Origin: an uncultured Verrucomicrobiota bacterium
GTDB lineage: Bacteria; Verrucomicrobiota; Verrucomicrobiia; Limisphaerales; UBA9464
Length of the DNA stretch: 60,433 nt
Direction of reading: 5' to 3'
Assembly: GCA_903907925.1 (NCBI GenBank)
Contig: CAIVQB010000117.1
Coordinates: forward strand, 1 to 60,433
Position numbers and translations under genes: made by a program. Below the pieces are notes generated by a model. That model saw only the letters and a program-made list of their open reading frames with translations, was not told where the DNA came from and made no database searches. Numbering within the stretch: the first letter of the stretch is position 1; the number at the start of each line of letters is the position of its first letter. Below are positions 9,714-12,574 of this stretch, piece after piece.

Positions 9714-9806
9714 AACCAAACCGCACCGGATCACGATGGCGAAAGCCGGACCAGCTCGGAAGAAGCTGCGAATGGACACTGACCCACCCGCCACCCCGCC
9801 ACCCCG

Positions 9807-9953
9807 CCACCCTGTCATTCCGCTAGCTTCGCCGAGAGACTGCAGGAGTCGCTCCCGATCTGCGGAATCCCGAAAAATGGCCTCCCACCGGTCACCACGA
9901 CTCATCAAATGGTAAACTGCTCCTTTGTACTCGATTCTCAGCCCCCTTGGCAT
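9807..9953 (-). pseudogene. truncated REP-associated tyrosine transposase (RAYT, IS200-like)
   Basis: The first 49 codons match the start of Y1-type RAYT transposases: Met-Pro-Arg-x-Leu-Arg-Ile-Glu-Tyr, then a Tyr-His-x-x-Ser-Arg-Gly-Asp segment with the family's expected spacing, then an Asp-Arg-Glu helix. After about 9807 the reading frame runs into a short tandem of CCGCCACC-type sequence and unrelated codons, so the catalytic His-x-His and Tyr regions are missing. The start lies 25 bases from one copy of the 20-base repeat that also lies beyond the hsdM remnant. RAYTs are single-copy housekeeping-like transposases tied to REP repeats; this one is a dead fragment. Confidence 0.7.
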
Positions 9954-9978: not shown

Positions 9979-10010
9979 TTGTGTCAATAGTGAGGACCCC
10001 TTTTCACGAG
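9979..10010 (+). repeat. left copy of the island's inverted repeat
   Basis: Contains TTGTGTCAATAGTGAGGACC followed by CCTTTTC. The reverse complement of the same 20 bases is found at 12279-12298, with the CCTTTTC extension preserved, so the two copies bracket the OLD and hsdM region in inverted orientation. Confidence 0.85.
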
Positions 10011-10056
10011 CCGCTCGAGCCGCTCGAAAGGCTGTTTTCGGAGTAGGCTTGGGGCA

Positions 10057-11820
10057 TTACAGCTTCTCAATGAGTTCCAGTAAACGTTCCAAATCCTTGT
10101 GTGCATGCTTAAGATCAATCGTGTCCGCAATCTTACTATGGATGTATGGCTTTTTGAACTTCGGATCAGCCAACCCGTTTAACGGGACACCTTTGCTGCC
10201 AATATTCTTCTTCAGGTCGATCAGACTATAGCCATTGCTGTAGTCGTTCTTAGTGGGACATTCGGTCGTCAGTATTTTAGCAACGGCACCCTTGTTGTGG
10301 TCTGTAATTAGAGAAAACTCCAAGTCGGATGTGAACACGAAAACGTTCAATCCGGCGTCTTTGAAATATTTTTCGCTGGCGGTGGCGGCGGCGGTGAACT
10401 CCGCCTCGGTCTTGTCCAATGCAGTATCAATTGTGGCTGTGACAGTCGACAAGGATGTGTGGGAATAACCAGCGTCTTTTGCGCCCCGGAGAATTGGCCG
10501 GTCTGCGTTCGCGATCAGTGAGTCAAAATCCGTTACGACCATGTGCGGAATATTTGCGGTGTTCCACGCCCGTATCATTCGCAGGAATGGCGAGAAGTTT
10601 TTATTTCCGGCAGCAGAAACTACTGAGATTCGGTGCGCTTGAGGCCCAAGTTTCTTTTCCAGAAGCAGCTTGATAACCCGCTGGTCAGACTCGCCTTCCA
10701 CCAAGACGACTTTATCCGCGAAGAACAACAAATTGTTAACCTCCGAGCTGTAGGCATCGAAAGTTTGTGCATCACGCGGAGTCTTAACATCTGGAATGTG
10801 CAACGCCGAATAGGTTCCCTCTTTCCGGACTAAACCCAAACGTGTGAACGGCGTTTCGGCAACGATGTATGGACTGTGAGTCGTTACAATTATCCTTAGA
10901 TTTTCGGACTGAGCTGTCCGGACATTCTGGTAAAGCTCCTTCTGCTTTTGGGGATGGAGAAATGCCTCTGGCTCTTCCACAGCGAGGATGAATTGAACAT
11001 CTGGATTCTCTGCAGCGCTCTGCTCAAGCCGATGCAGTGCAAGAAGAACTCCACTTTGAATTCCCGACCCTGCCTCAGATAAGGCCAGGGTCACGTTTTC
11101 ATCGTCCGTCAGTTGAAAACCGAGGCTGAGGTTGTTCAAAATCCACTCGCCGATCTGTTTGACATCCACATTAAATTTCAGCCCGAGCTTGTGCTGAGTC
11201 GAAAAACCAAAATTCTTTTGAATTCGAGGTAACAGTGCCTCATTCACATAAGGCTTGATCGTGTCGGTAATTCTGTCTCGAATTTCTTTCAACGTGCGAT
11301 ATTCCTTCGGAGTCCCGCCAGCCTTCTGTGGAATCATTTTCGATAGACCGTGCTCACGCAGCATTCGTGAGAACAATTCTTGAAACTGCACCGAAGAGGC
11401 GTCACGGAGGGCCGGAATTAGCACGAATCTATTTTTCTCGCGAAGTTTTTTCAAAACATCCAATGCAGTCCGAGTGGTTTTTGCGTTCCTTGTGATCTTC
11501 TCCAAGACAGTAAATGTCAGATCGGCTCGAACGGTAACGTATAGCTGCTTTCTAACCCCGCCGTCACCGTAATTGAGCGTAATCCGGCGAGCTTGGGGTC
11601 CGACCGGGAACATAGGCAAAAGGCGCTCGGCAAGATCGGGATGCAGTGCTCCGAGTTTAAGCGTTTCCTCGTCCAGCTGATTTAGGACGATGTCAATCGC
11701 CTTGAGAATCGATGACTTGCCATGGTCGTTTTGACCGATAAGCACAGAAGTTCTTTCGAGGTCGAATCGAAGAGTCTTGAATGCCTTGATGAACGCGAAC
11801 TCAACGGATTCAATCTTCAT
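10057..11820 (-). CDS. OLD-family ATPase with TOPRIM nuclease domain
   Basis: A 587-residue protein. The N-terminal ABC-type ATPase has Walker A at residues 29-37 (Gly-Gln-Asn-Asp-His-Gly-Lys-Ser-Ser), a signature-like Ser-Glu-Ala-Gly-Ser-Gly near 247, Walker B with Glu282 and a His loop near 313. A TOPRIM domain follows, with Glu375 in Val-Glu-Gly-Glu-Ser-Asp and the Asp431-Phe-Asp433 metal site. This is the layout of OLD and GajA-type nucleases, which cut DNA in phage defence. No UvrD-like GajB partner is adjacent, so a complete Gabija system is not supported. The gene is low in GC and lies beside a broken hsdM, a common setting for OLD proteins in restriction islands. Confidence 0.85.
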   Translation of the reverse strand: MKIESVEFAFIKAFKTLRFDLERTSVLIGQNDHGKSSILKAIDIVLNQLDEETLKLGALHPDLAERLLPMFPVGPQARRITLNYGDGGVRKQLYVTVRADLTFTVLEKITRNAKTTRTALDVLKKLREKNRFVLIPALRDASSVQFQELFSRMLREHGLSKMIPQKAGGTPKEYRTLKEIRDRITDTIKPYVNEALLPRIQKNFGFSTQHKLGLKFNVDVKQIGEWILNNLSLGFQLTDDENVTLALSEAGSGIQSGVLLALHRLEQSAAENPDVQFILAVEEPEAFLHPQKQKELYQNVRTAQSENLRIIVTTHSPYIVAETPFTRLGLVRKEGTYSALHIPDVKTPRDAQTFDAYSSEVNNLLFFADKVVLVEGESDQRVIKLLLEKKLGPQAHRISVVSAAGNKNFSPFLRMIRAWNTANIPHMVVTDFDSLIANADRPILRGAKDAGYSHTSLSTVTATIDTALDKTEAEFTAAATASEKYFKDAGLNVFVFTSDLEFSLITDHNKGAVAKILTTECPTKNDYSNGYSLIDLKKNIGSKGVPLNGLADPKFKKPYIHSKIADTIDLKHAHKDLERLLELIEKL

Positions 11821-11889
11821 TGTTTTTTACTTTTTGATCCACGCCCCCCCGACAGCAGCAGGTCGCGCGTCCGGTGAAGGTATTGGATT

Positions 11890-12084
11890 TAGCGTTGGAG
11901 CTTGAGAATGCCACCGAACGGCGGCGCGGCTCGTTCGGAGATCTGGCTCACCCTTTTGAGACGTGCGGAGTATTCTTGGGATTTTGAGGACGGAATTGGC
12001 GCGGAACTGTTCGGCGGCGTCCCAGAAGCGCTTTTCCGAGACGGCGGTTGCGGTCACTTTCTGCGACGGTGCGATCCAAATCAT
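11890..12084 (-). pseudogene. hsdM: remnant of type I restriction methylase HsdM N-terminus
   Basis: From the ATG at 12084 the frame encodes a stretch matching the HsdM N-terminus: Glu-Lys-Arg-x-Trp-Asp-Ala-Ala-Glu-Gln-x-Arg-Ala-Asn-Ser-x-Leu-Lys. At about 11981-11985, in a run of A on the coding strand, the match shifts to the next frame and continues Ser-Gln-Glu-Tyr-Ser-Ala, exactly the next conserved HsdM block, before similarity is lost. A one-base insertion in the A run explains this. The methyltransferase domain is gone, so it cannot work. I infer that a type I restriction system once stood here beside the OLD gene. Confidence 0.55.
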
Positions 12085-12264
12085 GCCGGGGACTCCAAGA
12101 AGGGGCGAAGTTACTCAGCCCCTCATTGACGGCAAGTGTGTTGTGGCGAACGCCGACGGTCGTCCTGTCAGCGGGCGGTCAAACCCAGCCAGTGTCTGAG
12201 GTGAACAAGTTCATTGCCGAGCGTGCCCGATAGTTGGGTTCGTGGTGGCGGATGAACCACCTCT

Positions 12265-12298
12265 GTGGAAAAGGGGGCGGTCCTCACTATTGACACAA
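12265..12298 (-). repeat. right copy of the island's inverted repeat
   Basis: Its reverse complement begins TTGTGTCAATAGTGAGGACC, then GCCCCCTTTTCCAC. Compared with the left copy the first 20 bases are identical; the C-rich spacer differs in length and the TTTTC extension is kept. Confidence 0.85.
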
Positions 12299-12574
12299 CG
12301 ACACCAAATCACCCTCTTTTTGATAGGATGAGGATGTTTAAAACGCAGGTCCAACTCCCCATTTTTGAGCCGGGCGGCAGTCGCTCGCCATTTCCAAAGT
12401 GTTTCAAGGGTAGTGCAAAGTCCACCATCCGCACAGGTTGACAAGCCACCTACCTGAAATCCCTATTCGGATTCACCAATTTGTTTTTGGGCGAACCGGC
12501 GGAGCTCAAAGAGTCGAGTCGTTTCTCGCCTTCCGGGTTTCGGTCGTGCAGCCTTGGTGCCGATACAGAGCCGT

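What the first reader, a model, noticed from the sequence alone, without database searches (positions are those of the whole stretch)
9979..12298. OLD nuclease and broken hsdM bracketed by inverted copies of a 20-base repeat, next to a dead RAYT
TTGTGTCAATAGTGAGGACC is present at 9979-9998 and, inverted, at 12279-12298, both followed by C-rich sequence and TTTTC. Between them are an intact OLD-family gene and a frame-shifted HsdM N-terminus, both low in GC. A truncated RAYT begins 25 bases outside the left copy. RAYTs are known to act on REP-type repeats near them, so this may be a defence cassette bounded by RAYT-linked repeats, a carriage mode rarely discussed for OLD systems.
Basis: partly seen in the sequence, partly recalled or inferred. 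Interest (0 to 1): 0.62.

Follow-up and report, generated by a model that had tools for sequence, protein, structure and literature searches.

The report
Defence gene in dead restriction operon
An apparently intact anti-phage-type OLD gene survives inside the wreck of a type I restriction-modification operon, and the matching repeats on either side are the outer ends of two separate small transposon remnants, so it does not look like a transposon-borne cassette.

Summary
The two 20-base copies are real, and so is the RAYT relic beside the left one. The repeat is the end of a RAYT-type element with terminal inverted repeats, like the published TIRtron/TIRYT elements; intact 1-kb copies and miniatures occur in related genomes. 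There the ends face the other way: among listed neighbours up to 1.2 kb apart in relatives, 18 pairs have element polarity, 1 the window's, 4 are same-strand. So OLD lies outside both elements, between their outer edges. A second such bracket in this genome holds a sigma-factor gene. An 85% and a 70% homologue lack the repeats.

The real unit is a collapsed type I operon: start of hsdM, tail of hsdS, whole OLD, start of hsdR whose ATG overlaps the OLD stop. In G721 a 70% homologue directly follows a full-length-looking hsdS, overlapping it, with a shortened hsdR further on. OLD is under strong constraint (dN/dS about 0.05-0.09). Defence genes between hsdS and hsdR are known. Against: one 62% homologue (L121) does lie between REPs beside a RAYT; this is left open.

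The parts
9813..9953 (-). Relic of a RAYT gene: first 47 codons only, rest replaced by unrelated or repeated sequence
   Evidence: tblastn of the intact RAYT of L111: 68% over residues 1-47, E 8e-15; intact RAYT is Y1_Tnp PF01797
9979..9998 (+). Left repeat: outer end (TIR) of the RAYT element whose gene is the relic at 9813-9953; inside points left
   Evidence: 25 nt from the RAYT start here, 27 nt in the intact elements L100 and L111; 20 of 26 to the consensus end without gaps
10028..10057 (-). Relic of hsdR: first ten codons (MPQAYSENSL), ATG overlapping the OLD stop (TAATG)
   Evidence: the start pattern is met by 1 of 1432 ATGs in the window, this one
10057..11820 (-). Intact OLD-family ATPase-TOPRIM gene, 587 aa
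   Evidence: Pfam AAA_15 1.9e-29, OLD-like_TOPRIM 7.2e-15; PADLOC GajA 1.4e-40, Old 7.4e-35; 6p74 E 4.3e-15; dN/dS about 0.05-0.09 against L120
11853..11900 (-). Relic of the hsdS C-terminal tail, with an in-frame stop
   Evidence: 13 of 16 residues, score 54 against at most 39 in 500 shuffles
11983..12090 (-). Relic of the hsdM start
   Evidence: 69% over 36 aa to an HsdM_N/N6_Mtase ORF of G013 (Pfam of that ORF)
12273..12298 (-). Right repeat: outer end (TIR) of a second element; inside points right, no partner end found by 12560
   Evidence: 25 of 26 to the consensus end; best candidate partner 14 of 26, shuffles average 13.6

Best explanation
A type I restriction-modification operon of the order hsdM-hsdS-OLD-hsdR, with OLD as an embedded accessory defence gene, was acquired and then collapsed. 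Shown: the segment keeps the start of hsdM, the tail of hsdS, the whole of OLD and the first ten codons of hsdR, all on one strand and in that order. Inferred: one or more deletions joined hsdM to hsdS, and another event at the left repeat removed the rest of hsdR. Shown: the two flanking repeats are outer ends of RAYT-type elements (one with a dead RAYT, one a lone end) whose insides point away from OLD. Inferred: they landed or were left there independently, in a stretch whose two flanking chromosomal operons were not found adjacent in the related genomes compared. Inferred: OLD still works alone as an ATP-binding TOPRIM nuclease; in its home operon it would be a second line of defence beside or after restriction.
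For: Order and strand of four recognisable pieces. In G721 a 70% OLD directly follows hsdS (Methylase_S), overlapping it by ATGA, with the end of hsdM upstream and HSDR_N downstream. HsdS tails also precede OLD in L120 (E 7e-4) and L135 (E 1e-9). OLD conserved: dN 0.09, dS 1.1-1.7, codon-position differences 81/41/272. Repeat ends, intact elements and miniatures in relatives, with polarity 18 to 1. No repeat in L120, L121 or G721 nor in 29 other OLD loci of about 3 kb.
Against: No empty site or undamaged ancestral copy was found in the same genus. G721 is itself not a whole operon: its hsdR ORF is 420 aa and hsdM was recognised only by its end. Close OLD homologues are few (four counting the window), and one of them, L121, shows no hsdS tail that I found and does sit between REPs beside a RAYT. 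The hsdR piece is only ten residues long.
Confidence: 0.85

Rival explanations
1. One reading: the two repeats are the ends of one mobile unit that carries OLD and the hsd fragment, moved by the neighbouring RAYT.
For: Two perfect 20-nt inverted copies close to both edges of the low-GC segment and a RAYT relic beside one. L121: a 62% OLD between perfect 29-nt inverted REPs with a Y1 transposase gene 12 nt outside, in the polarity of that genome's REP pairs. RAYT adjacency in 2 of 4 close homologues against 0 of 29 other OLD loci by four RAYT queries.
Against: Polarity in the window is the reverse of the elements (18 to 1). Other brackets of this polarity hold ordinary genes. L120 and G721 lack the repeats. 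In the window hsdR is cut off at the left repeat, as expected of a break and not of an edge chosen to include whole genes.
Confidence: 0.05
2. RAYT loci or the DNA next to them are shared landing sites: OLD genes and RAYT elements gather in the same variable stretches without moving one another.
For: Window and L121 both have OLD beside a RAYT, of two different kinds. In G013 a miniature element lies about 0.7 kb upstream of a type I hsdM. The flanking operons of the window are not adjacent in relatives compared.
Against: Small numbers; G721 and L120 show no RAYT nearby. It is compatible with the best explanation and adds only why the repeats are there.
Confidence: 0.3
3. OLD is a solitary class 1 gene acquired on its own, and the hsd scraps beside it are unrelated debris.
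For: It stands alone among intact genes today.
Against: The scraps are in operon order and on the same strand, the hsdR ATG overlaps the OLD stop, and hsdS or its tail stands directly before OLD in three other genomes.
Confidence: 0.03

Closest known systems
TIRtrons / TIRYT (PMC3733652, section 16 read; probably subclass 2.1 in PMC6006769, section 20 read)
   Same: RAYT-type Y1 transposase gene flanked by terminal inverted repeats with a GGGG tip; repeats scattered, often in pairs
   Different: The window holds only two lone ends and 47 codons of one RAYT. The tip is GGGGTCGG in most copies seen, one letter off the published GGGGWSAS; G013 copies (GGGGTCAG) fit it
REPINs / REPtrons (PMC2817692 and PMC6006769, passages)
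   Same: RAYT flanked by inverted copies of a repeat that also occurs in pairs elsewhere
   Different: In the window the repeats lack the GTAG head named there, and the bracket has the reverse polarity
Defence genes embedded in type I RM operons, such as DarTG2 between hsdS and hsdR in EPEC (PMC12255303, passages) and PrrC in a type IC locus (PMC12707154, passages)
   Same: Accessory defence gene between hsdS and hsdR (for G721; relic in the window)
   Different: The guest is an OLD nuclease, and in the window the host operon is dead while the guest is intact
OLD family, class 1 (P2 Old, T. scotoductus OLD) and Gabija GajA (PMC10568477, passages)
   Same: ABC-ATPase plus TOPRIM; Walker A, ABC-signature-like, Walker B and TOPRIM motifs kept and shared with L120 (motif names recalled)
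   Different: No GajB or reverse transcriptase beside it, but derived from an RM operon and not a gene away from other defence genes

Membership tests
TIRtron / TIRYT element (source of both repeats) | Y1 (IS200-like) transposase gene | tested here: met
   Intact in relatives: L111 is PF01797, E 3e-12. In the window only 47 codons; nothing alignable beside the right end
TIRtron / TIRYT element (source of both repeats) | Gene flanked by terminal inverted repeats that are not GTAG REPs | tested here: met
   L100 and L111: the same 26-nt end at both sides, inverted; no GTAG head in it
TIRtron / TIRYT element (source of both repeats) | GGGGWSAS tip | tested here: inconclusive
   Most copies GGGGTCGG (one letter off), G013 copies GGGGTCAG (fits)
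TIRtron / TIRYT element (source of both repeats) | C-terminal helix-turn-helix extension (subclass 2.1) | tested here: inconclusive
   Protein is long (316 aa), but Pfam at E 0.01 reports only Y1_Tnp
Mobile cassette bounded by the two repeats | Ends in the polarity of the element's mobile units | tested here: not met
   Window + then -; relatives within 1.2 kb: - then + 18, + then - 1, same-strand 4; 93 of 111 sites used
Mobile cassette bounded by the two repeats | Cargo keeps the repeats in relatives | tested here: not met
   L120, L121 and G721 lack this repeat; L121 has other, GTAG-type repeats
Mobile cassette bounded by the two repeats | Empty site in a relative | tested here: inconclusive
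   Flanking operons found apart in same-genus genomes, so no site could be compared
Defence gene embedded in a type I RM operon | hsdM, hsdS, guest and hsdR in order on one strand | tested here: met
   As relics in the window; in G721 hsdS whole, hsdM end and shortened hsdR
Defence gene embedded in a type I RM operon | Functional host operon | tested here: not met
   hsdM, hsdS and hsdR are truncated in the window; no Methylase_S match in the own genome
Class 1 (solitary) OLD | ABC ATPase plus TOPRIM in one protein | tested here: met
   Pfam and 6p74 match
Class 1 (solitary) OLD | Single gene away from other defence genes (PMC10568477, passage) | tested here: not met
   hsd relics at both sides; hsdS directly before OLD in G721
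Gabija GajA / retron-Eco8 effector | Partner helicase or reverse transcriptase next to OLD | tested here: not met
   Neighbours are hsd relics, then kinase and sigma-factor genes; NCBIfam Eco8 model 62 bits against a cut-off of 250
OLD family nuclease | Nuclease or anti-phage activity | not testable with these tools
   Needs a bench assay

The most novel reading that the evidence does not exclude
RAYTs of more than one kind pick up this OLD subfamily. In L121 a 62% homologue fills the space between two REPs in REP-pair polarity with a RAYT 12 nt outside, and the window is a decayed example in which rearrangement has turned the ends round.
Probability: 0.05. Interest if true: 0.7.

Novelty: new member of a known kind. 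Interest (0 to 1): 0.27.

Why it matters
It removes a proposed new carriage mode for OLD genes and replaces it with a testable one: OLD as a guest in the hsdS-hsdR gap that outlives its host operon. It also warns that inverted copies of RAYT-linked repeats must be checked for polarity before the DNA between them is called a cassette.

Tried and rejected
Empty-site comparison: the kinase genes left and right of the segment were sought in the seven same-genus genomes (own genome also searched) and compared in 13 fetched stretches, one of them from the own genome. sigR-kinR-sdh-hemW order is kept in G007; kinL with sigL lies elsewhere there. No site could be compared.

Partner end for the right repeat at 12299-12560: none above chance. 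A possible second repeat inside the left relic (16-mer at 9770): 3 sites in the genome at up to 2 mismatches, only the window's exact; dropped. OLD relatives in plasmids (E 1e-20) and viral contigs: none. PADLOC scan of eight ORFs around intact RAYT elements: no hits, but several of those ORFs may be wrong frames, so it weighs little. The ORFs taken from L114 and L005 had no Pfam family and may be wrong frames too. An early blastp of the HsdM fragment against ORFs of OLD loci gave nothing significant. No structure prediction was run; sequence families sufficed. One paper search returned mostly unrelated papers.

Rows dropped before counts: the polarity count used 93 of the 111 sites that one search reports for 12 genomes other than the own, because only 41 of 59 were listed for G034. 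Of the seven + then - neighbours in relatives four were opened; those of 36.5, 7.0 and 3.3 kb (3307 bases) were not. GC inside and outside the four brackets differed little or was higher inside (0.72/0.66, 0.65/0.66, 0.66/0.66, 0.68/0.62); for the own-genome bracket on C115 the part read has GC 0.56 against 0.62 for the window, which is lower than I would have liked for a plain chromosomal bracket.

Mended on recount: the HsdS tail identity is 13 of 16, not 14; the RAYT in L121 starts 12 nt from the repeat arm, not 13; G721 is not a whole operon. The odds did not need to change.

Full report
THE OBSERVATION. The 20-mer is present exactly twice in the window, inverted, with none expected by chance. 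GC drops to 0.49-0.50 over 10-12 kb. The intact gene is an OLD-family protein: AAA_15 and OLD-like TOPRIM in Pfam, GajA and Old models in PADLOC, and T. scotoductus OLD (6p74) as best solved structure (E 4e-15). The RAYT relic is real: 47 residues at 68% identity to an intact RAYT.

WHAT THE REPEAT IS. In the own genome the 18-base core has 13 sites at up to 3 mismatches (8 forward, 5 reverse; reversed-pattern control 0 and 1). By my reading of their flanks, four sites adjoin RAYT starts or ends: the window's left copy, C124, C115 and C52; by tblastn only the window's and C115's reach E 1e-3. No intact RAYT of this type was listed in the own genome; the two PF01797 hits there are of another type. 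Among 96 genomes, own included, 13 have the core at up to 1 mismatch, one with 59 copies, and every control count is 0. Two fetched intact elements, L100 and L111, show the whole: a 26-base end, a RAYT of 316 aa (Y1_Tnp for L111), and the same end inverted, about 1.05 kb in all. Miniatures with the same ends are mostly 50-185 bp with varied interiors; two G013 copies are longer, 241 and 351 bp. This matches the TIRtrons with TIRYT transposases of PMC3733652 (section 16 read), which PMC6006769 (section 20 read) places mostly in its subclass 2.1. Their TIRs often share a GGGGWSAS tip; here the tip is GGGGTCGG or, in G013, GGGGTCAG.

POLARITY. In these elements the ends point outwards: - then +. 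Among 93 listed sites of 12 relatives (of 111; 41 of 59 for G034), neighbours up to 1.2 kb apart are - then + 18 times, + then - once, same-strand four times. The window has + then -, 2.3 kb apart. So each repeat's inside lies away from OLD: on the left the RAYT start 25 nt off (27 nt in L100 and L111), on the right nothing recognisable, and no second end by 12560. The OLD segment lies between the outer edges of two elements. The same genome has another such bracket, C115 6265 + and 8913 - (the second site at 3 mismatches), around a sigma-70-type gene. Four of seven such brackets in relatives were opened: a PQQ-repeat protein, a protein with a prepilin-type N-terminal methylation motif, a TPR/CsgG protein and one ORF without a family. 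None was recognised as a defence gene by Pfam.

WHAT OLD BELONGS TO. The 85-codon ORF upstream of OLD is an HsdM start (69% over 36 aa to an ORF with HsdM_N and N6_Mtase, E 1.4e-11). In another frame the same stretch runs into an HsdS tail (13 of 16 residues; 0 of 500 shuffles reach the score). At the other end the OLD stop overlaps an ATG (TAATG) that opens MPQAYSENSL, like HsdR starts such as MNYTEDTLV in G721 and MTYTEDALV in an annotated HsdR. The pattern M, up to four residues, Y[ST]E[DN]xL occurs at 1 of 1432 ATGs in the window; over all fetched loci there are 9 hits in 27,237 ATGs (redundant loci included): G721's hsdR start and a copy of it, the annotated HsdR, and this same place. The pattern was drawn from these starts, so this is a consistency check and not an independent test. 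The order is hsdM'-'hsdS-OLD-hsdR'. No Methylase_S gene was found elsewhere in this genome.

RELATIVES OF OLD. Close ones are rare: own copy only in 387 genomes of the phylum at E 1e-40, two of 369 in the class of a proteobacterial MAG, two loci in genome contigs, none in plasmids or viral contigs. G721 (70%) shows the context best: hsdS (Methylase_S) runs into OLD with an ATGA overlap; PIN, RhuM-Fic and HSDR_N genes follow. G721 is not a whole operon: its hsdR ORF is 420 aa, and of hsdM only the end was recognised. L120 (85%, 499 of 587 residues) keeps an HsdS tail before OLD and lies beside a HaeII-type endonuclease and a cytosine methylase. L135 (31%) also has an HsdS tail just before OLD. 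The window's repeat is absent from L120, L121 and G721 and from 29 other OLD loci of about 3 kb each, one of them a second weak hit in the own genome. Between window and L120, OLD has dN 0.09 and dS 1.1-1.7, with 81, 41 and 272 differences by codon position, and the ATPase and TOPRIM motifs agree. OLD is kept by selection while the hsd genes are gone.

AGAINST. L121 (62%) is the exception: OLD between a perfect inverted 29-nt pair of GTAG REPs, with a Y1 transposase gene starting 12 nt outside. Its genome gives 31 matches to that REP at up to 2 mismatches, some places counted on both strands because the repeat is palindromic, and three Y1 hits. The bracket has the polarity of that genome's REP pairs (for example L210, L212). 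With the window, two of four close homologues lie beside RAYTs, of two different types, whereas none of 29 other OLD loci does by four RAYT queries; G721 and L120 do not either. This may be chance or shared landing sites; I keep it as the novel case.

KNOWN OR NEW. Defence genes set between hsdS and hsdR are in print: DarTG2 in EPEC, with the remark that the site may be a recombination hotspot (PMC12255303, passages), and PrrC within a type IC locus (PMC12707154, passages). OLD ATPases near BREX and RM-like systems are discussed in PMC12839542 (passages). Four searches pairing OLD or accessory genes with type I RM showed me no paper that describes OLD directly behind hsdS. One of their hits, PMC6945700 (passages), reports an OLD gene and an RM gene in P. 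aeruginosa that act independently. The library is partial, and most listed papers were not opened. Class 1 OLD is defined by single genes away from other defence genes (PMC10568477, passages), which this OLD fails by origin.

VERDICT. A new member of a known kind: an OLD guest that outlived its type I RM operon.

Noticed in passing
L121 1-3335: A 62% OLD homologue lies between perfect inverted 29-nt GTAG REPs, with a Y1 transposase gene 12 nt outside the left one and the end of a class II tRNA synthetase gene beyond the right ones.
   Followed up: partly
L225 2636-10846 (G721): In this type I RM locus copies of hsd gene ends recur beside the guest genes: a 101-nt copy of the hsdR start behind the PIN gene (97%), a shorter one behind OLD (88% over 33 nt), and a 96-nt copy of the hsdM end before hsdS (84%). 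Guests may enter by duplicating gene ends.
   Followed up: partly
G013 contig C164, L180 2702-2915 and 3560 onwards: A miniature element of the same repeat family lies about 0.7 kb upstream of a type I hsdM whose reading frame also looks broken.
   Followed up: no
L120 3446-5691: The 85% OLD homologue sits next to a HaeII-type restriction endonuclease and a cytosine-5 methylase, so the OLD gene keeps company with restriction genes of another type.
   Followed up: no
window 9787-9818: Three head-to-tail 8-mers (CCCGCCAC, the last diverged) mark the spot where the RAYT relic breaks off.
   Followed up: no
L014, L015 (own genome C75, C47): The own genome has two intact IS200-like Y1 genes of another type; no intact RAYT of the repeat's own type was listed, so this repeat family may be inactive here.
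   Followed up: no
L005/L013 (own genome C115 6265-8930): A second + then - bracket of the same repeat in this genome, next to another RAYT relic, encloses a sigma-70-type gene; GC of the part read is 0.56.
   Followed up: partly
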